This document shows, piece by piece, positions 28,524-42,819 of a stretch of DNA of 64,000 bases (within the stretch, counting starts at the first letter, position 1; every line of letters begins with the position of its first letter). The translations under genes were made by a program, and so were the position numbers. Below the pieces are notes generated by a model. The model made no database searches and was not told where the DNA came from. It worked only from the letters and a program-made list of their open reading frames with translations. The DNA comes from an uncultured Acidimicrobiales bacterium (GTDB taxonomy: Bacteria; Actinomycetota; Acidimicrobiia; Acidimicrobiales; Hopanoidiivorantaceae): positions 2,174,022 to 2,238,021 of the forward strand of contig OY282367.1 in the NCBI GenBank assembly GCA_958295755.1, read 5' to 3'.

Positions 28524-31500
28524 TTATTTGATTGCTTGATAGCAGTCTTTGATGCAGTTGTCCCAGCCGAAGATGTTTATTAGCAGGGTGCCTATGTGGG
28601 CTCTGTTCGCACCTTTATAGCAGTAAATTTCGCCGTTTTGTTGGCAGAATGCTACTTGGATGTCGCTTTGGGTGATTTGGTCCGCGGTGCTGTTGCGGAC
28701 GGGTTCCATACCGGCCATTGAACATATCATGTCTTGGCGGTCTAGGGCTGGTGCGGTATTTCTGGGTAGCTCTGTGATAGTTATGGACACTTGGGCGTTT
28801 AGAGTGTGGCCGCCGGCGGAGCGATAAGGCACGGTGAAGGTAGCTGTGCCTGTGTCTGCGCCGACGGTGATTTGATAGCTGCAGCCTGTGTTGGTAGCGC
28901 GGGTGATTTTGGTGTCTCGGTTAGTAGCTTGGCCGCAGGTGATGGTGTAGCTACCGTCTGTGACGTAGCTGGCAGCGTTTATGGTTATGGTGCTGCTAGC
29001 TGTCATAGATAGCCCTGTGGGTGGGGTATAGACAATAGTGGACGCAGCACCGATTTCTATATTGATAACGCCATCTAAGGTGGCACCGCCTATGGAGCGG
29101 TATGGCACTGTGAAAGTGGCTGTGCCATGGGTGCCTGTGGGAACAATATTGAAACCGCAAGAATCACTGTTGGGGCGTGTAATGGTGATTTTGGTATCCA
29201 CACTTGTAGCGTTGCTGCATTCAATGGGATAGTCGCCGTCTGTGGCATAGCTAGCTGCATTTATGGTAAGTGTGCGGTTAGTCCCCAGCTTCAAACCAGT
29301 GGGGCTAGTAAAAGAAATAGTAGAAGCCGGGCCGATCTCAACAGTGAAAACGCCGTTCAGTGTGGTGCCGCCGCTGGAGCTATAAGGCACAGTAAAGCTA
29401 GCTTCACCTTGTGTGCCTGTAGGTGTGATAGTGAATTTGCAAGGCTCACTGCTGGGATTAGCCCGCATAACAGTGATCTTAGAATCCACACCAGTAGCGT
29501 CGCCACAAGAAATGCTATAGTTCCCGTCAGACGCATAACCTAAAGCATCAATCACAAGAGTCCGATTAGTACCCAACTCAAAATCAGAAAAAGGCTCGCG
29601 AAAATAAAGAACAGAAGGCGGAGAATAGATATTAACCGAGATAGTAATATCTAGGGCCTGACCGCCGGTGGAAATGTAAGGCACAGTAAAGCTAGCAGTG
29701 CCAGTAAATGAGCCAGCAGTAACCATAAAAGAACAACCAGACCTGCGAACCGTAATCTTAGCATCTACATCGGTAGCATCCCCACACGAGACAATATTAC
29801 TACCAGCAGGAGTAAAAGCAGTAGTATCTAGAATGATGCTTCTGCCCGTCAACACAGACGGATTCAGACTACGTGTTCCGTGACGGAATGGGATAAAATT
29901 AGGACCGACTGTGATAGATACAACACCATCATATGTGTCGCCGCCTGTGGAGGTGTAGGGGATGGTGAAGGAAGATGTTCCTTCTGTGCCTGTGGGTGAG
30001 ATGGTGTAGTTACACCCTGAGCGTTGGATAGTGATTTTGCTTCCGACATTTTTGGCATCTGAACAAGAAATGGTGTAGGCACTGTTTTCAGTTACATAGT
30101 CCAATGCGTTGATGGTTAGACTCCGGTTTTTGCTCACTTGGAGGCCAGAGGGGGTAGCGAATGAGATATTGGAGGCTGGGCCTATGGTGATAGTGACGGT
30201 GCCATCTTCTGTGTCGCCGCCTGTGGAGGTGTAGGGGATGGTGAAGGAAGATGTTCCTTCTGTGCCTGTGGGTGAGATGGTGTAGTTACACCCTGAGCGT
30301 TGGATAGTGATTTTACTTCCGACATTTTTGGCATCTGAACAAGAAATGGTGTAGGCACTGTTTTCAGTTGCATAGTCCAATGCGTTGATGGTTCGGTTAC
30401 GGTTTTTGCCCACTTGTAGGCCAGTGGGGGCTGTGAATGAGATATTGGAGTCTGGGCCTATCGTGATAGTGACGGTGCCATTTTCTGTGTCGCCGCCTGT
30501 GGAGGTATAGGGCACAGTGAAGGTAGCTGTGCCAGTCTGTGAACCAGGTGTGATTGTGTAAGTGCAACCATCGCGAGTGATAGTAGAGATTAAGGCGTGT
30601 GTGTTTGTGGCATCAAGACAAGAAACCGTGTAGCCCTGGCTTTCGGTGATGTAGGAGTGAGCATCAATGTCAATGCTTCTGTTGGTTGCCACCAAAAGCC
30701 GTTTAGGTGCTGTGAATGTGATCTCTGATATTGCACCGAGATCTACAAAAATAATTCCTAGGTGTGTATCGCCTCCTGTCGACATATAAGGTACCGCAAT
30801 GGCAGTTGTTCCCTGAATCCGATGTAGAAGTGTATAAGAGCACCCATTTTGAGATATTTGCAACAAGTGGCGGTAAACATTAAACACGCGGACAACTTCA
30901 CCACATGAGATTGAGTAGCTACCATCTGCGACATAGGAGGAAGCATCAATTATGATGTTTCTGTTTATCGCAATTGAGAGAACCTCTGGAGGTGTGAAAA
31001 CGATATTTGAAGCCACCCCTATTGAGATAGCAATGATGCCGTTGTGTGTATTCCCGCCTGATGAGGTGTAGGGCACGGTGAATGTGGCTGTGCCAGTGGT
31101 GGTGCCTGCTGTGACTGTAAACAAGCAGCTATGAGGTGATCTGGAAATGGAAGATATTCTGGTGTGTTGATTTGTGGCATCCCCACAAGTAATGGTATAG
31201 CTACCATCGGAGGCATAAGTAGAAGCATTGATGACGGTGGATTGTCCAGCGGCAACAGTTGGGTTTGGGCTGGGAGCTGTAAATCTGATATTTGATACCC
31301 CAGAGGTTGAAGTAATAGCAACAGAAACCTCACCGTTGTGGGTGTCGCCACCTGCGGAGGTGTAGGGCACGGTAAATGTGGCGGCAGCGGCGACCGTGCT
31401 ACCTGCGGTGATTGTGTAGGAGCAGCCACTGCGGGTGATAGAAGAGATGCTTGCATGCTTGCCAGTAGCATTGCGACATGAGATTGCGTAGATGCCGTCT

Positions 31501-32972
31501 TTCACATAGCGACTAGCGTCAATGGTGATGCTTTTGCCTGAATTTATGACCAGGCCAGTGGGATTCGTATAGACGATATTGGAAGTTGCTTGACAACCAA
31601 TGGGATCATATTGCCTTGTGCCTAGACGTATGCCAGTGCGTAAATCTGTTGGCACACCGCCACTAATGGAATTATCACAGATGAGAAAAGCACTTAGTAC
31701 CCCACTTCCAGAAGAAGCGAGCCTGTTGAGTTGAGTGGGAATATTACCGGAAAGTTGATTATTGTTGAGCCGTAGGTTTCTAAGTTGTATGAGCTGATCG
31801 AATTCTGTGGGTATGTTGCCTGTGAGTAAGTTATAGGAAAGGTCAATGGTAGCGATTTTTGTGAGATTTCCCAGTTCAGATGGAATATTACCAGAAAGAA
31901 TGTTATGAGAAAGATTCAAGCCTTTAGTTGAGCTTCCAGCCAAGTTGGTGAGGCTACCAAGTTCTGTGGGTATGTTGCCTGCCAAACCATTATAAGAGAG
32001 GTCGAGTGTGGTGAGGTTGGTGAGTTGTCCGATTTGTGTGGGTATGTTGCCCGTGAGTCGATTTCTGGTGAGGTCGAGTGTGGTGAGGTTGGTGAGTTGT
32101 CCGATTTGTGTGGGTATGTTGCCGCCAAGTCTGTTGTTACTGAGGAAGAGGTTTGTTAGGTTTGTGAGGTTACCGATTTGGGTGGGTATGTTGCCACTAA
32201 GGTTATTGCCGGCGAGGGTGAGTGTGGTGAGGTTTGTGAGGTTACCGATTTGGGTGGGTATGTTGCCACTAAGGTTATTGCCGGCGAGGGTGAGTGTGGT
32301 GAGGTTTGTGAGGTTACCGATTTGGGTGGGTATGTCGCCAGTGAGTCCCCTTGCGAAATTGAATAAATCACTGTCCAATTCAAGTATTGTCAAGTTAGAT
32401 AAATTCCATATCTCTTTGGGTATGTTGCCTGATAAATTATGGCTATTGAATCGAAGTGAAGTAAGTGCTGTGAGGTTGCCTAACTCTGCTGGAATACTGC
32501 CTTCGACTCTGCTGTAGGAAAGATATATTGAATCAACACGGTTGTTTTTAAGAGAGACGTTTTGCCATGTATTTATTTTTTTATTCGTGCCTGTTCCCCA
32601 AGTTTTGAGAAATTTATCAGAGGCCAAACTACCGTTACTTTGCACTGCTGCCCAGTGATTTTGGACAGCTACTAGAGCTTGGCAATCTTCTACTAGATCG
32701 TTATTGGTGCCTACTACTCTTGGGTTGGCTGTGAGGTCTACGAAACTACCGTCAGTACAACCTGTGGAAGACAAAGCAACAACTGGGGTTGTTAAACTTT
32801 GAGAGGAAGCTAGGGAAGCAGAGACTGGGGAAGCTCGAGTAGGTGTGAGGGAGGTGCCTGCAACTGCTAGAGCTAAGGAGGTAACGAAGATTAATTTATA
32901 CAAAATTCTAAACGGGGGGGGGGGTGGCTGTTTTAGACATTTCATCGCGGGCTGAGGCATCACTTTGTGCAT
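28524..32972 (-). CDS. Giant secreted LRR protein 1, with poly-C tract in the signal region
   Basis: About 1482 residues from the ATG at 32972, which has AGGCG about 8 nt upstream. An upstream extension of 17 residues has no counterpart in the second LRR protein. Order of parts: a basic start, five prolines (16-20) encoded by an 11-nt C tract, a hydrophobic signal core (~23-39), and an N-cap with CTDGSFVDLTANPRV and DCQALVAVQNHW. About ten plant-type 24-residue LRRs follow (consensus NLTNLTTLxLxxNxLSGNIPTQIG) and a C-cap ending GCQ. Then come ten ~92-residue beta repeats, each with two Cys (ISC...GC) and a closing FTVPYTSxGG, and an ~80-residue C-terminal domain with six Cys. No LPXTG or C-terminal helix is seen. 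Likely exported; adhesion or recognition is inferred. Confidence 0.88.
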   Translation of the reverse strand: MHKVMPQPAMKCLKQPPPPPFRILYKLIFVTSLALAVAGTSLTPTRASPVSASLASSQSLTTPVVALSSTGCTDGSFVDLTANPRVVGTNNDLVEDCQALVAVQNHWAAVQSNGSLASDKFLKTWGTGTNKKINTWQNVSLKNNRVDSIYLSYSRVEGSIPAELGNLTALTSLRFNSHNLSGNIPKEIWNLSNLTILELDSDLFNFARGLTGDIPTQIGNLTNLTTLTLAGNNLSGNIPTQIGNLTNLTTLTLAGNNLSGNIPTQIGNLTNLTNLFLSNNRLGGNIPTQIGQLTNLTTLDLTRNRLTGNIPTQIGQLTNLTTLDLSYNGLAGNIPTELGSLTNLAGSSTKGLNLSHNILSGNIPSELGNLTKIATIDLSYNLLTGNIPTEFDQLIQLRNLRLNNNQLSGNIPTQLNRLASSGSGVLSAFLICDNSISGGVPTDLRTGIRLGTRQYDPIGCQATSNIVYTNPTGLVINSGKSITIDASRYVKDGIYAISCRNATGKHASISSITRSGCSYTITAGSTVAAAATFTVPYTSAGGDTHNGEVSVAITSTSGVSNIRFTAPSPNPTVAAGQSTVINASTYASDGSYTITCGDATNQHTRISSISRSPHSCLFTVTAGTTTGTATFTVPYTSSGGNTHNGIIAISIGVASNIVFTPPEVLSIAINRNIIIDASSYVADGSYSISCGEVVRVFNVYRHLLQISQNGCSYTLLHRIQGTTAIAVPYMSTGGDTHLGIIFVDLGAISEITFTAPKRLLVATNRSIDIDAHSYITESQGYTVSCLDATNTHALISTITRDGCTYTITPGSQTGTATFTVPYTSTGGDTENGTVTITIGPDSNISFTAPTGLQVGKNRNRTINALDYATENSAYTISCSDAKNVGSKITIQRSGCNYTISPTGTEGTSSFTIPYTSTGGDTEDGTVTITIGPASNISFATPSGLQVSKNRSLTINALDYVTENSAYTISCSDAKNVGSKITIQRSGCNYTISPTGTEGTSSFTIPYTSTGGDTYDGVVSITVGPNFIPFRHGTRSLNPSVLTGRSIILDTTAFTPAGSNIVSCGDATDVDAKITVRRSGCSFMVTAGSFTGTASFTVPYISTGGQALDITISVNIYSPPSVLYFREPFSDFELGTNRTLVIDALGYASDGNYSISCGDATGVDSKITVMRANPSSEPCKFTITPTGTQGEASFTVPYSSSGGTTLNGVFTVEIGPASTISFTSPTGLKLGTNRTLTINAASYATDGDYPIECSNATSVDTKITITRPNSDSCGFNIVPTGTHGTATFTVPYRSIGGATLDGVINIEIGAASTIVYTPPTGLSMTASSTITINAASYVTDGSYTITCGQATNRDTKITRATNTGCSYQITVGADTGTATFTVPYRSAGGHTLNAQVSITITELPRNTAPALDRQDMICSMAGMEPVRNSTADQITQSDIQVAFCQQNGEIYCYKGANRAHIGTLLINIFGWDNCIKDCYQAIK
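29945..30496 (-). repeat. 276-bp tandem repeat (92 codons) in LRR protein 1
   Basis: Two adjacent beta-repeat modules are nearly identical in DNA as well as protein. For example, ctgtggaggtgtaggggatg recurs at 29945 and 30221, exactly 276 bp apart. A third copy begins near 30497 but is diverged. This indicates recent module duplication or gene conversion. Confidence 0.85.
32161..32335 (-). repeat. 72-bp identical LRR-coding repeats
   Basis: Copies at 32161-32232 and 32233-32304 appear identical, with a partial third from 32305. Each encodes one 24-residue LRR. Confidence 0.9.
32914..32924 (-). repeat. Homopolymer tract: 11 C on the coding strand of LRR protein 1
   Basis: Eleven consecutive G on the plus strand, coding for Pro between the start codon and the signal core. 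Loss of one base gives TAA at the eighth codon after the tract, and gain of one gives TAG at the second. Confidence 0.95.
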
Positions 32973-33009
32973 GTATGATCGCCTCGCAAAACTGGAGTGG
33001 TGAAAGTGG

Positions 33010-34231: not shown

Positions 34232-37200
34232 CTAGCTGATTGCTTGGTAGCAGTCTTTGATGCTGTTGTCCCAGCCTCGGATGTTTATTAGCAGGGTGTC
34301 TATGAAGGCTCTGTTGGCACCTCTAAAACAGTGAAGTTCGCCGTTTTGCTGGCAGAACGCTGCTTGGTTGTCGCCTTGGGTGATTTCATCGGCGGTGCTA
34401 CTACGGACGGGTTCCATACCTACCATTGAACAGATCGTGTCTTGGCGGTCTAGGATTGGTGCGGTATTTCTAGGCAGCTCGGTGATGGTGATAGATATTT
34501 GACCATCTAGGGTATGGCCTCCTGCGGAGGTGTAGGGCACAGTGAAGGTAGCGGTGCCTGTATCTGCGCCGACGCTGATTTGATAGCTGCAGCCTGTATT
34601 GGTAGCGCGGGTGATTTTGGTGTCCCGATTGGTGGCTTGGCCGCAGGTGATGGTGTAACTACCGTCTGTGACAGCTGCGGCTGCGTCTATGGTTAAGGTG
34701 CTGCTAGCGGTCATAGTCAGCTCTGTGGGTGCTGTATAGACAATAGTTGACGCAGCACCGATTGCTATGTTGATGGTGCCGTCTTGGGTGGCACCGCCGC
34801 TGGAAGTATAAGGCACAGTAAAGCTAGCAGCACCTTGTGCTCCAGTAGCTGTGATAGTAAATTCGCAAGACGCAATGCTCGGATTCGCCTGAGTAACAGA
34901 AATCTTAGAATCCACCCCTGTAGCGGTGCCGCAGGTTATGACATAGCCGCCATCTGTGACATAGCTAGCAGCATCTATGATGCGTGTGCGGTTAGTTCCC
35001 AGCATCAAGCCACTGGGCGCGCTATAGGCAATAGTAGAAGCCGGGCCGACCTCAATAGTGAAAACACCGTTGCGGCTGGTACCGCCGCTGGAGGTATAAG
35101 GCACAGTGAAGCTAGCTTCACCTTGGGTGCCTGAAGGAGTAACAGTAAATTCGCAAGGCTCACCACTCGGATTAGCCCTTTGGATAGTGATAATAGAAGT
35201 AGACACACCGGTAGCATCGCCGCAAGAAACGCTATAGCCCCCATCAGACGCATAATCCAAAGCGTCAATCACAAGAGTCTGATTAGTACCCAACTCCAAA
35301 TCAAAAGACCCACGGAAGAAAATATGAGAAGGCGGACGATAGACAATAACTGAGAAAGTAGCGTCAAGAGTGTCGCCGCCGCTGGAGCGATAAGGCACAA
35401 TGAAGGTTGCAGCACCCGAAGTGCTGCTCGCAGTCACCGTGTATCTGCAAGTGTTGCCGATGCGAACAACCGAAGCTATCTGATCACTTTCTTCTCTGGC
35501 AACGCCACATGAAATCGTGTAGCTACCATCGCTTGCATATTGGGAAGCATCGAATGTGATGGATCTGTTTATATCCACAGCCAAGGTGCCGGGGTCGGTG
35601 AATGTGATGTCGGAATTGGGGCGTAGTCCTATAGAGATCGCCCCGTTGTGGGTGTCGCCGCCAGATGAGGTATAAGGCACGACGAATGAGGCAATGCCTG
35701 GGTTATCACCTGGTGTGATAGTGAAGACGCAACCGTCTCGTGTTACCGAGGATAACCTGCTGTGAATTCTGGTGGCGTCAGCACACATGATTATGTGGTT
35801 GCCATCAGATGCGTAGGTTGAAGCGTCTATTCTCAAATTTTGGCTACCGGTGATTGTGAGACCAGAGGGTGCCGAGAACACGATCTCAGATGTGTCGGAC
35901 GGCGGACCGACGGTAACTCGAATTGTTCCGTTCGCTGTGGTGCCACCTGCTGAAGAGAACAGCACAGCGAAAGTTGCTGAGCCTTGAATCGTTCCAGCTT
36001 TGATATTGAATTGGCATCCGTTTCGTGTTACGGAAATCCCGTTGCTCACTGAAGTGGGATTACTACAGGTAACTGTGTAGCCGCCATCTGATGCGTAGTT
36101 CAGAGCATTGACGATAATTTGACGCCCCGCAGGCACTGAAAGGTCAGATGGAGCATTGAATCTCAGGCTGGAAGCTATCTGGCAGCCGATTGGGTCATAT
36201 GTGGTTGTTTCCCAAGAGGGTATCGCTGTGTGCAGGGCTGTTGGCACGGCTCCTGTGAAGTAGTTGCGGCAGATAGTTAATTGAGTAAGGCTACCTGTGG
36301 GAGTGGCTAGAGTGGCGAGTTCGGTGGGTATAGTGCCTGTGAGCCGGTTGTCACTGAGGCCGAGCTGTGTGAGTTTGGTGAGTTGGCTGAGTTGGGTGGG
36401 TATGTTTCCTGTGAGGCGGTTGTAGCTGAGGTCGAGTTCTGTGAGGTTTGTGAGGTTGCCTATTTGTGTGGGTATGTTGCCTGTGAGCCGGTTGAGGCCG
36501 AGGTCTAGGTTTGTGAGGTTTGTGAGGTTGCCTATTTGTGTGGGTATGTTGCCTGTGAGCCGGTTGAAGCCGAGGTCTAGGTTTGTGAGGTTTGTGAGGT
36601 TGCCTATTTCGGTGGGTATGTTGCCTGTGAGGCGGTTGCTACTGAGGTTGAGGGTTGTGAGCCCTGTGAGGTTGCCTATTTCGGTGGGTATGTTGCCTGT
36701 GAGGCGGTTGTTACTGAGGTTGAGGGTTGTGAGCCCTGTGAGGTTGCCTATTTCGGTGGGTATAGTGCCTGTGAGTTGGTTGTCGTGGAGGTAGAGGTTG
36801 GTGAGGTTGATGAGGTTGCCTATTTCGGTGGGTATGGCACCTGTGAGCCGGTTGTCACTGAGGCCGAGCTGTGTGAGGTTTGTGAGGTTGCCTATTTCGG
36901 TGGGTATGGCACCTGTGAGGAGGTTGGTACCGAGGTTGAGGTTTGTGAGCTCTGTGAGGTTGCCTAGTTGTGTGGGGATAGTGCCTGCAATTCCTGGGCT
37001 AATGCCACCAAATGGCCTAGAAAGATTGAGTGAAGTAACACGTTTGTTGGTGATGGTTATATTTGACCAGGTGTTTATTTTTTGGGTTGTGCCTGTTCCC
37101 CATGTGCGCAGGGGGTGAGTGGCTGAAAGGATGTTGTTTTCGGTTACTGCGGCCCAGTGGTTTTGGATGGCTACTAGAGCTTGGCAGTCTTCTGCTAGAT

Positions 37201-40200
37201 CATTATTTGACCCCTCAACTCTGGGGTTGGTTACGAGATCGACGAAAGTGCCATCGGTGCAACCAGATGCTGGAAGAGTAGTAATGGCTGTGCCAGACGG
37301 TGATTCTTCCCACTGACAGCCGACTGGGTCATAAGTGGTTGTTTGCCAAGAGGGTATCGCTGTGCGTAGGGCTGTTGGCACGGCTCCTGTGAAGTAGTTG
37401 CGGCAGATAAATAACCAAGTAAGGCTACCTGTGGGAGTGGCTAGAGCGGCGAGTTCGGTGGGTATGTTGCCTGTGAGGCGGTTATTGTCGAGGTTGAGGG
37501 TTGTGAGTTTTGTGAGGTTGCCTAGTTGTGAGGGTATGTTGCCTGTGAGGCGGTTGCCCGAGAGATTCAGTCCCGAAATGAAGGTGTTACCTGTGAGTTT
37601 GGTGAGGTTACCTATTTGTGTGGGTATGTTGCCTGTGAGGCGGTTGTAGCCGAGGCTTAGGTTTGTGAGAGCTGTCAAACTGCCTAGTTGTGTGGGTATG
37701 TTGCCTGTGAGGCGGTTGCCACTGAGGTTGAGGGTTGTGAGCCCTGTGAGGTTGCCTATTTCGGTGGGTATAGCACCTGTGAGCCGGTTGAGCCTGAGGT
37801 CTAGGTCGGTGAGGTTTGTGAGGTTGCCTATTTCGGTGGGTATAGCACCTGTGAGGCTGTTGCTATCGAGCCGGAGCTGTGTGAGTTTAGTGAGTTGGCT
37901 GAGTTGTGTGGGTATGTTGCCTGTGAGTCGGTTACTCCTGAGGTTGAGGTTTATAAGCCCTGTGAGGTTGCCTATTTCGGTGGGGATAGTGCCTGCAATT
38001 CCTGGGCTAGTGGCACTAAATGGCCTAGAAAGGTTGAGTGAAGTAACACGTTTGTTGGTGATGGTTATATTTGCCCAGGTGTTTATTTTTTGGGTTGTGC
38101 CTGTGCCCCATGTGCGGAGGGGATGAGTGGCCGAAAGGTTGTTGTTGTCGGTTACTGCGGCCCAGTGGTTTTGGATGGCTACTAGGGCTTGGCAGTCTTC
38201 TGCTAGATCGTTATTTGCGCCAGTTACTCTGGGATTTGCGGTGAGATCTACAAAGGTGCCGTCGGTGCAGCCGGTTGCTGAGAGTGCCGAGATTGGATCT
38301 GGGGCAGGTGTTGTCGGTGCATTGACTGTAATGGATATAACGCCGTTATGGGTGTCGCCTCCAGAGGAGGTGTAGGGCACGGTGAATGTGGCAGTGCCGC
38401 TTGTATTGCCTGAAGTAATGTTGTAGAGGCATCCGCTAGATCGGGTAACTGTGATTTTGGAATCTACTAAAGTTGCATCGGCGCATGAAATTGTGTAGTC
38501 ATCATCTGTTACATAAGCCAAAGCATCTATAGCCAAACCACCTTGCGAAAGGCTACTAACACCAGTGTTTATCGCAAGGCCAGTTGGTGCGGTGAATGTG
38601 ATGTTTGAAATATTTATGACAATTATTCCGTTTTCAGAGTCGCCGCCGGTGCTTCTGTAGGGCACTGTAAAGCTCGCGATGCCTTTTGCGTTTGATTGAG
38701 CAGCAATAACATAAGAGCAACCTGTGCGAGAAGTGATGCTGATTTTAGATGAGACACTTGTGGCATCAGCACAAGAAATGGTGCTAGTGCCATCTGTAGC
38801 ATAAGACGAAGCATCTATCGTTTTGCTTGCTCCTGCTACCATCGAAAAAGCAACGGGGCTTGAAAATACTATGTTAGAAGTTGCTGAGGATGGGGTGATA
38901 GTTAGGGTAACAATGACGCTTTGCGTTGCACCACCTGCACTGGTATATGGCACGGTGAAGTTGGCAAAACCAGCGGTGGAGCCTGCCGTTACGGTGTATC
39001 TGCAACCTTCGCGCGAAATGGAAGAGATTTGCGAGGAAACGTTAGTGGCATCAGCACAACTAATGGAATAACCACCGTCTGTCACAAAAAGTCTTGTGTT
39101 AATGGTAACTCGGCGACTGGCTGGCACAGATACACCGCTAGATACTACGGGTAAAGATCGCGATGGATGAAGGGAAGTGGGAGGAATCAGGTTAATCGAT
39201 GAGTTTCTTTGGCAGCCAATTGAAGTGCTAGGTTGGCTGGTTGGATATCCAACGAGTATTTGAGTTAGGAAATTGGCTTGGGGTAGCGATCCTGAAAGAT
39301 AGTTTCCGCAGATCAACAAACTTCTGAGGTTGCCCCGTCCGCTGGTAGATATGGGAGTTGTCGCTGGAGCAAGATTAGCTAGTTGAGCAGGAATTTCCCC
39401 CGAGAGTTGGTTGTGTGAGAGGTCTAGCCACATCAGGCTAGTGAGTTTGCCCAAAGTTGTGGGTATCTCACCAGATATTGAATTGCCACCGGTGGATTCG
39501 CTGTCGTTGCCTAGATCGAGGCGAAGGAGTTTGGTGAGGTTCCCTAATTCAGCGGGTATGTTGCCTGTGAGCTGGTTGTTTGAGAGGTCTAACCATGTGA
39601 GGTTGGTGAGGCTACCTAGTTGCGTAGGGATAGCACCTGTGAATTGGTTGCGAGAAAAATTAAGGGATGTGAGGCTTGTCAAACTGCCGAGCTCAGAGGG
39701 GATACTGCCAGAAAGACTATTTCTGCCGAGGCTTAAGTTTGTGAGAGCTGTCAAACTGCCAAGCTCAGAGGGGATACTTCCCGATAGCCGGTTGTTATAG
39801 AGGCTTAGGTTTGTGAGAGCTGTCAAACTGCCTAGTTGTGTGGGTATGTTGCCTGTTAGCCGGTTTCCTGACAAGTTAAGCGAGGTGAGACTGGTGAGAT
39901 TGCCTAGCTGGACGGGTATAGACCCTGATATTCCGGGATTAGATCCTGCGGGGTTGAATAAACTGAAAATAGAGATTCGGTTATTGTTGATTGTGATATT
40001 GGCCCAATTTTCAATACCGGGATTTGTTGTGTCTGTGCCCCAAGTGCGAAGAGGATGTTCGGTTGGCAAGCTGTTGTTGGCGGTCACTGCTGCCCAGTGA
40101 TTTTGAATAGCTACTAGAGCCTGGCAGTCTTCTACAAGATCGTTGTTTGCTCCCGCAACTCTGGGGTTGGCTGTGAGGTCTACGAAAGTGCCGTCGGTGC

Positions 40201-42790
40201 AGCCTGTAGCAGACAGGGCAGTGATAGCCGTGCTTGCGGCCGGGTTAGCATATTGGCATTGGACTGAGCTATATCCCGCATTTGTTGGATAACTCAGCAG
40301 GAGAACTCCAGATTGCAATCCAACTGGCACTGCTCCAGTCAGGTAGTTGTTGCAAATTGCCAGCCTGCTGAGGCGGGTGAGGCTTCCGAGTTGGGTGGGT
40401 ATGTTGCCTGTGAGCTGGTTATTGTTGAGCCAGAGGTTGGAGAGGTTGGTGAGGTTGCCGAGTTGGGTGGGTATGTTGCCTGTGAGTTGGTTGTTGGAGA
40501 GGTTGAGGTTGGAGAGGTTTGTGAGGTTGCCTAGTTGTATTGGAATAGATCCGCTGATGTCCTGATCCGTAAGCCCTATAGAGCCTACGCGATCAAAGCT
40601 GGAGGTGCCAGAACTGAAGATGCCAGACCAATTGAATATCTTCTGCGAAGCTCCCACTCCCCAAGTTCTAAGGGGATGGTTGGCTGGAAGATTATTATTT
40701 GCGGCAACTCCAGCCCAATGGTTTTGAATAGCGACTAGAGCTTGGCAGTCTTCTGCTAGATCGTTATTGGCACCTGTGACTCTGGGGTTGGCTGTGAGAT
40801 CCACAAAGGTACCGTCGGTGCAGCCTGTGGCAGAAAGGGCGGTGATAGCACCTAGTGGTGTGGTGGTTGAGCTGATGGTGATTGTGATTGTGCCGTTGTG
40901 GGTGTCGCCTCCTGCGGAGGTGTAGGGCACAATCAAAGTAGTGGTTCCTGTGGTTGAACCAGCAGTGAGGGTATATGTGCATCCGTCGCGTCTGATGGAT
41001 GTGATCTTCGAATCTCCTAATCTGGGATTTCCGCATGTGATGGTATATGAACCGTCAGTGGCATATGTTGAAGCGTCAATGGTGAGGTTGCGCTCTGCCT
41101 CCATAGTGAGATTTGTGGGGGCTGTGAAGACGATGTTGGAGGCTACGCCGATGGTGATGGTGATTGTGCCGTTGTGGGTGTCGCCGCCTGCGGAGGTATA
41201 GGGCACAGTGAAGGAAGCGGTGCCTGTTTGGGTGCCTGCGGTGACGGTGTAGAGGCAACCGATGCGAGCAATGGAGGAGATTTTGGCGTGTTTGTTGGTG
41301 GCGTCTTCACACGAGATGGTATAAAAGTCGTTGTCGGATGCATATTGAGAAGCATCAACAATAATGCTTCTGCTGACAGACACTGTGGGATTAGTAGGCG
41401 GGGCAGTGAAGACGATATTGGAAATCGGGTTCTGGCAGGCGATGGGGTCATAGCCGTCTGCGCTGGGATAGTCCCGTAAGTTAACACCCGTACGAAGGCT
41501 TGAGGGCAGTGCTCCGGTAAGTTGGTTACGGCAGATGCCAAGGTGGGCAAGAGTTGTGATTGCCCCTAGCTGGGTCGGAACAGAACCTGTAAGACGGTTA
41601 TCGTTGAGCCAGAGGTTGATGAGGCGGGTGAGGTTGCCAATCTCTGTGGGTATGTTGCCTGTGAGCTGGTTATTCGAGAGATCCAGTCCCGGACTGTAGG
41701 TGTCACCTGCGAGGTTGGTGAGGTTGCCTATTTCAGTGGGTATGTTGCCTGTGAGCTGGTTGCTAGCGAGGTAGAGGTATGTGAGGTTGGTGAGGTTGCC
41801 TATCTGTGTGGGTATAGCACCTGTGAGGCGGTTATCGTGGAGGAAGAGCTGTGTGAGGTTGGTGAGGTTGCCTATCTGTGTGGGTATAGCACCTGTGAGC
41901 TGGTTGACACCGAGGTGGAGGTTTGTGAGGTCTGTGAGGTTGCCTATTTCGGTGGGTATGTTGCCTGTGAGTCGGTTGCTACTTAGCCAGAGGGTTGTGA
42001 GGTCTGTGAGGTTGCCTATTTCGGTGGGTATGTTGCCTGTGAGCTGGTTGTTACCGAGGTAGAGCTGTGTGAGGTTGGTGAGGTTGCCTATCTCGGTGGG
42101 GATAGTGCCTGTGAGGCGGTTGCTACTGAGCCAGAGGTTTGTGAGGTTTGTGAGGTTGCCGACTTGTGTGGGTATGTTGCCTGTGAGGCGGTTGCCATAG
42201 AGGATGAGGCTGGTGAGGTTGGTGAGTTGTCTGATTTGGGTGGGGATGTTGCCTGTGAGTCGGTTATCGTGGAGGTAGAGCTGTGTGAGGTTTGTGAGGT
42301 TGCCAATCTCGGTGGGGATAGTGCCTGCAATTCCTGGGTTAAAGCCAATAGATGGCCTAAAAAGTCTAAGTGAAGTAACACGTTTACTGGTGATAGTTAT
42401 ATTTGCCCAGGTGTTTATTTTTTGGGTTGTGCCTGTTCCCCATGTGCGCAGGGGGTGAGTGGCTGAAAGGATGTTGTTGTCGGTTACTGCGGCCCAGTGG
42501 TTTTGGATGGCTACTAGGGCTTGGCAGTCTTCTACGAGGTCGTTGTTGGCACCTGTGACTCTGGGGTTGGCTGTGAGGTCTACAAAGGTTCCGTCGGTGC
42601 AGCCTGTTGCGGAGAGTGCAGTGACGGGGGTTGTTTGGAATTGAGAGGAGGCTGGGGAGGCAAAAGTGGTTGTGAGAGTGGTGACTGCGACTGTAAGAGC
42701 GAGAAAGGCAAAAAAGATTTTTTTAGCTAGTGCATAAGACGGGAGGGGGGGGGTTGGCTGACTTAGATTTTTGTATCGCGGTTTGTGCAT
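34232..42790 (-). CDS. Giant secreted LRR protein 2, five LRR cassettes, poly-C tract
   Basis: About 2852 residues from the ATG at 42790. AAGGTG lies 6 nt upstream, so the GTG nine bases earlier is not chosen. A basic start, a Pro/Thr stretch (12-17) on a 9-nt C tract, and a hydrophobic core (~23-39) come first. The N-cap CTDGTFVDLTANPRV...DCQALVAIQNHW...LRTWG occurs five times, each starting an LRR cassette of roughly 3 to 12 plant-type repeats (LTGNIPTEIGNLTNL), about 40 LRRs in all. Eleven ~92-residue two-Cys beta repeats are placed after cassettes 1, 3 and 5. The last four and the final ~80-residue domain closely match LRR protein 1. No sorting signal or C-terminal helix is seen. Likely exported; the role in surface recognition is inferred. 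Confidence 0.9.
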   Translation of the reverse strand: MHKPRYKNLSQPTPPLPSYALAKKIFFAFLALTVAVTTLTTTFASPASSQFQTTPVTALSATGCTDGTFVDLTANPRVTGANNDLVEDCQALVAIQNHWAAVTDNNILSATHPLRTWGTGTTQKINTWANITITSKRVTSLRLFRPSIGFNPGIAGTIPTEIGNLTNLTQLYLHDNRLTGNIPTQIRQLTNLTSLILYGNRLTGNIPTQVGNLTNLTNLWLSSNRLTGTIPTEIGNLTNLTQLYLGNNQLTGNIPTEIGNLTDLTTLWLSSNRLTGNIPTEIGNLTDLTNLHLGVNQLTGAIPTQIGNLTNLTQLFLHDNRLTGAIPTQIGNLTNLTYLYLASNQLTGNIPTEIGNLTNLAGDTYSPGLDLSNNQLTGNIPTEIGNLTRLINLWLNDNRLTGSVPTQLGAITTLAHLGICRNQLTGALPSSLRTGVNLRDYPSADGYDPIACQNPISNIVFTAPPTNPTVSVSRSIIVDASQYASDNDFYTISCEDATNKHAKISSIARIGCLYTVTAGTQTGTASFTVPYTSAGGDTHNGTITITIGVASNIVFTAPTNLTMEAERNLTIDASTYATDGSYTITCGNPRLGDSKITSIRRDGCTYTLTAGSTTGTTTLIVPYTSAGGDTHNGTITITISSTTTPLGAITALSATGCTDGTFVDLTANPRVTGANNDLAEDCQALVAIQNHWAGVAANNNLPANHPLRTWGVGASQKIFNWSGIFSSGTSSFDRVGSIGLTDQDISGSIPIQLGNLTNLSNLNLSNNQLTGNIPTQLGNLTNLSNLWLNNNQLTGNIPTQLGSLTRLSRLAICNNYLTGAVPVGLQSGVLLLSYPTNAGYSSVQCQYANPAASTAITALSATGCTDGTFVDLTANPRVAGANNDLVEDCQALVAIQNHWAAVTANNSLPTEHPLRTWGTDTTNPGIENWANITINNNRISIFSLFNPAGSNPGISGSIPVQLGNLTSLTSLNLSGNRLTGNIPTQLGSLTALTNLSLYNNRLSGSIPSELGSLTALTNLSLGRNSLSGSIPSELGSLTSLTSLNFSRNQFTGAIPTQLGSLTNLTWLDLSNNQLTGNIPAELGNLTKLLRLDLGNDSESTGGNSISGEIPTTLGKLTSLMWLDLSHNQLSGEIPAQLANLAPATTPISTSGRGNLRSLLICGNYLSGSLPQANFLTQILVGYPTSQPSTSIGCQRNSSINLIPPTSLHPSRSLPVVSSGVSVPASRRVTINTRLFVTDGGYSISCADATNVSSQISSISREGCRYTVTAGSTAGFANFTVPYTSAGGATQSVIVTLTITPSSATSNIVFSSPVAFSMVAGASKTIDASSYATDGTSTISCADATSVSSKISITSRTGCSYVIAAQSNAKGIASFTVPYRSTGGDSENGIIVINISNITFTAPTGLAINTGVSSLSQGGLAIDALAYVTDDDYTISCADATLVDSKITVTRSSGCLYNITSGNTSGTATFTVPYTSSGGDTHNGVISITVNAPTTPAPDPISALSATGCTDGTFVDLTANPRVTGANNDLAEDCQALVAIQNHWAAVTDNNNLSATHPLRTWGTGTTQKINTWANITITNKRVTSLNLSRPFSATSPGIAGTIPTEIGNLTGLINLNLRSNRLTGNIPTQLSQLTKLTQLRLDSNSLTGAIPTEIGNLTNLTDLDLRLNRLTGAIPTEIGNLTGLTTLNLSGNRLTGNIPTQLGSLTALTNLSLGYNRLTGNIPTQIGNLTKLTGNTFISGLNLSGNRLTGNIPSQLGNLTKLTTLNLDNNRLTGNIPTELAALATPTGSLTWLFICRNYFTGAVPTALRTAIPSWQTTTYDPVGCQWEESPSGTAITTLPASGCTDGTFVDLVTNPRVEGSNNDLAEDCQALVAIQNHWAAVTENNILSATHPLRTWGTGTTQKINTWSNITITNKRVTSLNLSRPFGGISPGIAGTIPTQLGNLTELTNLNLGTNLLTGAIPTEIGNLTNLTQLGLSDNRLTGAIPTEIGNLINLTNLYLHDNQLTGTIPTEIGNLTGLTTLNLSNNRLTGNIPTEIGNLTGLTTLNLSSNRLTGNIPTEIGNLTNLTNLDLGFNRLTGNIPTQIGNLTNLTNLDLGLNRLTGNIPTQIGNLTNLTELDLSYNRLTGNIPTQLSQLTKLTQLGLSDNRLTGTIPTELATLATPTGSLTQLTICRNYFTGAVPTALHTAIPSWETTTYDPIGCQIASSLRFNAPSDLSVPAGRQIIVNALNYASDGGYTVTCSNPTSVSNGISVTRNGCQFNIKAGTIQGSATFAVLFSSAGGTTANGTIRVTVGPPSDTSEIVFSAPSGLTITGSQNLRIDASTYASDGNHIIMCADATRIHSRLSSVTRDGCVFTITPGDNPGIASFVVPYTSSGGDTHNGAISIGLRPNSDITFTDPGTLAVDINRSITFDASQYASDGSYTISCGVAREESDQIASVVRIGNTCRYTVTASSTSGAATFIVPYRSSGGDTLDATFSVIVYRPPSHIFFRGSFDLELGTNQTLVIDALDYASDGGYSVSCGDATGVSTSIITIQRANPSGEPCEFTVTPSGTQGEASFTVPYTSSGGTSRNGVFTIEVGPASTIAYSAPSGLMLGTNRTRIIDAASYVTDGGYVITCGTATGVDSKISVTQANPSIASCEFTITATGAQGAASFTVPYTSSGGATQDGTINIAIGAASTIVYTAPTELTMTASSTLTIDAAAAVTDGSYTITCGQATNRDTKITRATNTGCSYQISVGADTGTATFTVPYTSAGGHTLDGQISITITELPRNTAPILDRQDTICSMVGMEPVRSSTADEITQGDNQAAFCQQNGELHCFRGANRAFIDTLLINIRGWDNSIKDCYQAIS
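42745..42753 (-). repeat. Homopolymer tract: 9 C on the coding strand of LRR protein 2
   Basis: Nine consecutive G on the plus strand (with GGGA before them), at the same relative site as the tract in LRR gene 1. Loss of one base gives TAG, and gain of one gives TAA, within about eight codons. Confidence 0.95.
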
Positions 42791-42819
42791 TGGCGTCACC
42801 TTACAGTAGTTTCATAGTT

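What the first reader, a model, noticed from the sequence alone, without database searches (positions are those of the whole stretch)
32900..32972. Poly-C(11) contingency tract at the front of giant LRR gene 1
Seen: eleven C on the coding strand lie between the ATG (32972) and the signal-peptide core. I read the shifted frames: losing one C leads to TAA at the eighth codon after the tract, and gaining one leads to TAG at the second. The tract is therefore an on/off switch by position. Known: homopolymer tracts in the 5' coding region cause phase variation of surface proteins in Neisseria, Campylobacter and others. Inference: this surface protein is phase variable; I do not recall this described for this kind of actinobacterium.
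Basis: partly seen in the sequence, partly recalled or inferred. Interest (0 to 1): 0.85.

Follow-up and report, generated by a model that had tools for sequence, protein, structure and literature searches.

The report
Poly-C phase switch before LRR gene
A run of eleven Cs at the start of a large secreted leucine-rich-repeat gene is one of about 60 similar runs in this bacterium's genome, which together look like a set of random on/off switches for surface proteins and DNA-modification enzymes in an unnamed, probably uncultured actinobacterium.

Summary
C11 lies at 32914-32924 on the coding (-) strand, between ATG 32972 and the signal-peptide core. C8, C11 and C14 give the ~1482-aa protein; C9, C10, C12 and C13 stop after 20-27 aa.

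It is not isolated. The 2.29-Mb genome holds 62 C/G runs of at least 9 (30 of at least 10; about 3 expected), with a separate length peak at 9-10. They crowd around gene starts (64% within 160 nt, against 25% of control runs). They mark secreted LRR and RCC1 proteins, a prepilin-like family and many restriction-modification genes. A second species of the genus repeats the pattern in the same gene families; most other families of the order do not. Giant LRR gene 2 next door carries C9 in the same position.

Several sister genes are out of frame at the tract while their ORFs stay open (e.g. 5763 and 6001 codons), suggesting reversible rather than dead states. The genome encodes NucS and lacks MutS; NucS does not repair small indels. 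Best reading: slipped-strand translational phase variation.

Within-population length variation was not testable. Unexpected: poly-G lies on the leading strand in 58 of 61 tracts, whatever the gene's direction.

The parts
32914..32924 (-). C11 tract (G11 on the + strand), 48 nt after the A of the start codon; frame switch of LRR gene 1
28524..32972 (-). LRR gene 1, 1482 aa, in frame (ON) with C11
   Evidence: Pfam LRR_1, LRR_8, LRR_14
32982..32985 (-). weak Shine-Dalgarno-like GAGG, 9 nt before ATG 32972
   Evidence: sequence
32832..32972 (-). signal-peptide region (residues 1-47; core LIFVTSLALAVAG, possible cleavage after TRA), split by the tract at residues 16-20
   Evidence: read by eye; no signal-peptide predictor was run
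31683..32525 (-). leucine-rich-repeat region of gene 1 (about residues 150-430)
   Evidence: boundaries approximate
42745..42753 (-). C9 tract at the matching place in giant LRR gene 2; C6, C9 and C12 ON, all other lengths from C7 to C11 OFF
34232..42790 (-). giant LRR gene 2 (2852 aa from ATG 42790; an upstream GTG at 42799 is also in frame)

Best explanation
The C11 tract is a contingency locus. Slipped-strand mispairing during replication adds or removes single Cs, which moves the reading frame between the start codon and the signal peptide, so cells switch the secreted LRR protein reversibly between ON (C8/C11/C14) and OFF (other lengths). It is one member of a genome-wide set of roughly 60 poly-C/poly-G tracts acting mainly on surface or secreted repeat proteins, prepilin-like proteins and DNA methyltransferase or restriction genes. 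Lack of MutS and reliance on NucS, which does not repair 1-2-nt indels, would leave such slippage uncorrected. Shown: the tract, the frames, the enrichment, the gene classes, repetition in a sister species, NucS present and MutS absent. Inferred: length change in living populations, the switching rate, and the benefit (varying surface contacts, or escaping phage or predators).
For: Frames and stops. 62 runs of at least 9, 30 of at least 10 against ~3 expected, separate peak at 9-10, no matching A/T runs. 64% within 160 nt of a gene start against 25% of C/G 5-6 runs, P 9e-10. Targets are secreted LRR and RCC1 proteins, prepilin-like proteins and RM genes. Same gene families carry tracts in a second species; exactly-C9 runs number 32 and 39 in this genus, mostly 0-6 elsewhere in the order. 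Out-of-frame genes keep long open ORFs: 5763, 6001, 646, 708, 294 and 223 codons. Paralogues 937353 (C9, OFF) and 939623 (C10, ON) with ~92% identical flanks. NucS present, MutS absent; NucS does not repair indels (PMC11551767).
Against: No reads, isolates or second genome of the species, so no direct length variation. Assembly homopolymer lengths can be off by one, so single ON/OFF calls are provisional. In C. acnes similar tracts vary slowly, by clade (PMC4746626). Most close paralogue pairs have equal tract lengths (14 of 18 in G000, 19 of 26 in G001). No clear orthologue of gene 1 exists in G001. Some tracts have no evident switching role (one lies in a CRISPR spacer).
Confidence: 0.84

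Rival explanations
1. The tract changes only over evolutionary time. In a genome that cannot repair indels, homopolymers drift slowly, and OFF copies are recent losses or clade markers rather than a cell-level switch.
For: C. acnes precedent of 54 variable tracts consistent with phylogeny (PMC4746626). Equal lengths in most paralogue pairs. Some paralogues have interrupted tracts (e.g. L106, 97.9% identical copies with C10 and C6TC3).
Against: Crowding at gene starts and in surface and RM genes. Intact ORFs of thousands of codons behind out-of-frame tracts. Depletion of length 8 and a peak at 9-10. Genus-level expansion.
Confidence: 0.1
2. The tract has no effect on expression: translation starts after it (TTG 10 nt downstream), or the assembled length is wrong and the run is only a proline stretch.
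For: A TTG in frame lies just after the tract. Homopolymer length is the usual assembly error.
Against: No Shine-Dalgarno before that TTG, while GAGG precedes ATG 32972. The hydrophobic core alone would lack its basic leader. CCN codons could encode proline without a pure C run, and the tract excess recurs in an independent assembly.
Confidence: 0.04
3. The tracts are mainly recombination seams where gene modules are exchanged, and frame switching is a side effect.
For: Between two Type ISP genes, 88.6% homology over 316 bp begins exactly at the first base of the tract, with no matching alignment directly on the other side (285633 and 1094620). Prepilin-like paralogues 933669 and 931609 share one flank at ~92% and not the other.
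Against: Many paralogue pairs align straight through the tract. No such seam is seen at gene 1.
Confidence: 0.02

Closest known systems
Homopolymeric-tract phase variation of Neisseria, Campylobacter, Helicobacter and Bordetella (e.g. 29 tract genes in H. canadensis, PMC2823697)
   Same: G/C tracts of about 9-14 near gene starts, predicted frame switching, some in promoters or leaders, some late in genes where they change the C-terminus; many targets are surface or methyltransferase genes
   Different: Those show length variation in reads. Here the host is a MutS-lacking, NucS-bearing lineage, targets include giant LRR proteins, and the tract base follows the replication strand rather than the gene
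Gardnerella homopolymer tracts (PMC11287997)
   Same: Actinobacteria with tens of G/C tracts, many upstream of or in surface genes, length variation seen in vitro
   Different: Both A/T and G/C tracts there, fewer G/C tracts (median 20); here nearly all are C/G, about 60, with RM genes prominent
Cutibacterium acnes homopolymeric tracts (PMC4746626)
   Same: Actinobacterium, about 54 variable tracts, 96% G/C, between genes or affecting frames
   Different: Variation there follows clades and was read as slow accumulation; here no population data exist
Mycobacterial homopolymer indels with NucS (PMC11551767, PMC11898584)
   Same: No MutS; NucS does not repair 1-2-nt indels, so tract slippage persists
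   Different: In mycobacteria described for scattered native tracts; here a dedicated-looking set with a separate peak at 9-10
Phase-variable methyltransferases (phasevarions)
   Same: Tracts in HsdM, HsdS, N6/N4 methylase and Type ISP genes
   Different: No expression or methylome data; the RM link is to the genome-wide set, not to gene 1

Membership tests
Simple-sequence contingency locus (translational phase variation) | Homopolymer tract longer than chance | tested here: met
   30 runs of at least 10 against ~3 expected; peak at 9-10
Simple-sequence contingency locus (translational phase variation) | Tract placed so that +/-1 unit switches the gene off | tested here: met
   C11 ON; C9, C10, C12 and C13 stop after 20-27 aa
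Simple-sequence contingency locus (translational phase variation) | Set of such loci enriched in surface and DNA-modification genes | tested here: met
   Pfam of tract genes in two species; no formal category enrichment test against the whole proteome was made
Simple-sequence contingency locus (translational phase variation) | Out-of-frame copies keep intact ORFs | tested here: met
   5763, 6001, 646, 708, 294 and 223 codons open beyond out-of-frame tracts
Simple-sequence contingency locus (translational phase variation) | Tract-length polymorphism between orthologues or close paralogues | tested here: inconclusive
   4 of 18 and 7 of 26 paralogue pairs differ in length, e.g. 937353 C9 and 939623 C10; no orthologous tract could be aligned
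Simple-sequence contingency locus (translational phase variation) | Mixed tract lengths within a clonal population | not testable with these tools
   no reads or isolates held
Simple-sequence contingency locus (translational phase variation) | Reversible change in protein expression | not testable with these tools
   needs clones, reporters or proteomics
NucS-type repair background without MutS | NucS present, MutS absent | tested here: met
   with controls; genomes are 83-90% complete by the tool's estimate, so absence is likely rather than certain

The most novel reading that the evidence does not exclude
A replication-polarised contingency system. In this genus the tracts are kept or created by a fork-coupled process, so poly-G sits on the leading strand (and hence on the lagging-strand template) in 58 of 61 tracts while the target genes run either way (17 co-directional, 18 head-on). 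The replication strand, not the gene, decides whether a switch is a Pro-type poly-C or a Gly-type poly-G. This would tie phase-variation potential to fork direction in a NucS-only, MutS-less bacterium.
Probability: 0.45. Interest if true: 0.75.

Novelty: new member of a known kind. Interest (0 to 1): 0.64.

Why it matters
It adds a lineage not described before (as far as the held literature shows) with a large set of predicted phase-variable loci. The targets are giant secreted LRR proteins and many RM systems, which points to shifting interactions with hosts, neighbours or phages in an organism that has probably never been grown. The NucS+/MutS- background and the replication polarity of the tracts give a testable route to how such switches arise and persist. 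It also warns that annotators may call OFF-frame giant genes pseudogenes or give them wrong starts.

Tried and rejected
Looked for the same gene elsewhere: the protein search found only repeat-level matches in G001 and none in G002; the genome-contig scan returned one Aureispira LRR locus; viral contigs gave nothing for the tract flank. A DNA comparison of all G000 tract flanks with the G001 loci found no alignment spanning a tract, so orthologous tract lengths could not be compared. Considered that all tracts are contingency loci and rejected it: 52107 is in a CRISPR spacer, and the 7-base runs of L009 are CRISPR repeats; some tracts sit in genes with no clear switch, for example ribonucleotide reductase at 1254894. 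Considered poly-C as an inserted element because of the common A-C(n)-G flanks (45/62 A and 46/62 G): paralogues show tracts matching interrupted C-rich stretches as well as clean insertions, so this was left open. No structure prediction was run; it would not bear on the switch.

Full report
The tract. On the minus strand the gene starts ATGCACAAAGTGATGCCTCAGCCCGCGATGAAATGTCTAAAACAGCCA, then eleven C, then GTTTAGAATTTTGTATAAATTAATC, the beginning of the hydrophobic signal-peptide core. The run is window 32914-32924. Re-translation with other lengths shows that C8, C11 and C14 give the full ~1482-aa protein, while C9, C10, C12 and C13 stop after 20, 26, 21 and 27 aa. The protein is a leucine-rich-repeat protein (Pfam LRR_1, LRR_8, LRR_14), secreted by the look of its N-terminus. 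The neighbouring giant LRR gene 2 (ATG 42790, 2852 aa) has C9 in the same place, also in frame, also lost by any +/-1 change.

Not chance. In the 64-kb window there is no C/G run of 7 or 8, but there is one of 9 and one of 11. The window lies in a single 2,292,181-bp contig. All C/G runs of at least 8 were located there and nearly all their surroundings fetched. Exact lengths: 8 in 7 cases, 9 in 32, 10 in 18, 11 in 8, then 12, 13, 14 and 14. From the decay of shorter runs about 3 runs of at least 10 are expected and 30 are found (P ~ 8e-20). Long A/T runs are nearly absent (one of 9, none longer). Of 61 scorable tracts, 64% lie within 160 nt of a gene start, against 25% of C/G runs of 5-6 in the same loci (Fisher P 9e-10) and 19% of evenly spaced positions. 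Gene starts came from a simple home-made caller, so single distances are approximate.

What they sit on. Tract genes include many secreted LRR proteins, several of them giant, and two RCC1-repeat lipoprotein-like genes. A family with a prepilin-like GITLQTLIVTAVLVL segment has eight or more tract copies (no Pfam match). RM and methylation genes are frequent: two Type ISP enzymes, HsdS, HsdM, an N6_N4 methylase with C14 and an Eco57I/N6_Mtase-type enzyme. A gene at 1973235-1974173 with C14 looks like a cytosine methyltransferase by eye only; it was not scanned. Surface proteins and DNA modification are the classic phase-variable categories. In the second species of the genus (G001, 90 contigs, so a separate assembly) there are 66 runs of at least 9, with only two of 7 and two of 8 in the fetched parts, on the same families: prepilin-like, LRR, Type ISP, N6_N4 methylase, HsdM and others such as DUF1156. 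Exactly-C9 runs number 32 and 39 in the two species; most of the other 57 relatives searched have 0-6, with a maximum of 14.

Modes. Most informative tracts lie between start codon and signal peptide (frame switch). Others lie between Shine-Dalgarno and start (AAGGAGGA-C10-GTG at 410779 and 413176), in a 5' leader (1891531), or late in Type ISP genes, where they would change the C-terminus. C-terminal switching of this kind was proposed for H. canadensis (PMC2823697).

ON and OFF. Gene 1, gene 2, the C14 methylase, three prepilin-like genes (933669, 935511, 939623), an RCC1 gene and several LRR genes read in frame. The best start of others runs into a wrong frame at the tract: 548083 (C9; open frame 5763 codons), 603864 (C11; 6001 codons), 417872 (C10; 646), 1144953 (C9; 708), 1406993 (C10; 223) and 937353 (C9; 294). 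For 603864 the start is the least certain. The open ORFs argue that these genes are regularly restored. Paralogues 937353 (C9, OFF) and 939623 (C10, ON) share about 92% of their flanks. Caution: a homopolymer length in an assembly can be off by one, so single OFF calls are provisional. A 20,112-codon open frame in the same contig shows that ordinary indel errors are rare.

Repair background. NucS is present in G000 and G001; MutS domain V is absent from G000, G001 and G002, with positive controls. Mycobacterial NucS does not repair 1-2-nt indels (PMC11551767). So slippage would not be corrected, as in mycobacteria.

Replication polarity. dnaA is at 2,036,810, which puts the terminus near 0.89 Mb if the origin is beside it. 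Leaving out the CRISPR locus, 58 of 61 tracts carry poly-G on the leading strand (P ~ 3e-14), against 54% for runs of 3-4, 60% for 5 and 66% for 6. Runs of 7-8 go the other way but are few (4 of 17). Of 35 assigned target genes, 17 run with the fork and 18 against it. In G001, tracts on one contig agree with the contig's majority in 49 of 52 cases (none of 20,000 shuffles did as well). Part of this follows from ordinary GC skew, and tandem paralogues are not independent. The trend from shorter runs would predict, by my rough extrapolation, about 80% rather than 95%. I read it as a sign that a fork-coupled process shapes the tracts.

Limits and prior art. No reads and no second genome of this species were available; orthologous tract lengths could not be compared. 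Homopolymer phase variation in actinobacteria is already reported for Gardnerella (PMC11287997), C. acnes (PMC4746626) and M. tuberculosis (PMC11898584, abstract). Searches for the combination with Acidimicrobiia, sponges or metagenome-assembled genomes found nothing relevant.

Verdict. A real and very likely functional phase-variation tract, one of a large set; a new member of a known kind, in a new lineage, with an unexpected replication polarity.

Noticed in passing
genome C1: ~782.5-842 kb (+), ~166-209 kb (+), ~1631-1657 kb (+), ~209-230 kb (+), ~586-604 kb (-), ~530-548 kb (-): Giant LRR open frames of 20112, 14266, 8809, 6868, 6001 and 5763 codons without stops in a 2.29-Mb genome; most have a C/G tract at or near the start.
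   Followed up: partly
all C/G tracts of at least 9 in G000; contigs of G001: Poly-G lies on the leading strand in 58 of 61 tracts although target genes run both ways; G001 tracts agree within contigs.
   Followed up: partly
all tracts of at least 9 in G000 and G001: The C run is usually preceded by A and followed by G (G000 45/62 and 46/62; G001 39/66 and 44/66), unlike C5-6 runs; unexplained.
   Followed up: partly
L012:8200-9000 (genome 285.2-285.9 kb) and L020:6400-7100 (1094.6-1095.05 kb); G001 L093 and L116: Type ISP restriction-modification genes carry two to four poly-G tracts around the 3' end of the gene; homology between two of them starts exactly at a tract, and similar short peptide motifs recur in different frames, as if alternative C-termini were selectable.
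   Followed up: partly
L014: genome 410779-410788 and 413176-413185: C10 sits between AAGGAGGA and the GTG start of two near-identical LRR genes, so tract length would set the Shine-Dalgarno spacing; a third copy (417872) instead has C10 after its signal peptide and is out of frame.
   Followed up: partly
L018, L130, L131, L024 (genome 928-960 kb and 1406 kb) and many G001 loci: Multicopy family with a prepilin-like GITLQTLIVTAVLVL segment and no Pfam match, repeatedly associated with C/G tracts in both species.
   Followed up: partly
L009, genome about 50.4-53.5 kb: CRISPR-like array of 44 repeats (CAATGAAGGGGGGGCTGACCGCCCCCCGAAAC core, 70-75-bp period); one spacer contains C10 (52107), so that tract is not a contingency locus.
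   Followed up: partly
L026: genome 1891531-1891541: C11 in the leader between a TATACT-like -10 and the start of a solute-binding lipoprotein gene, next to a tandem homologue; possible tuning of transcription or translation.
   Followed up: no
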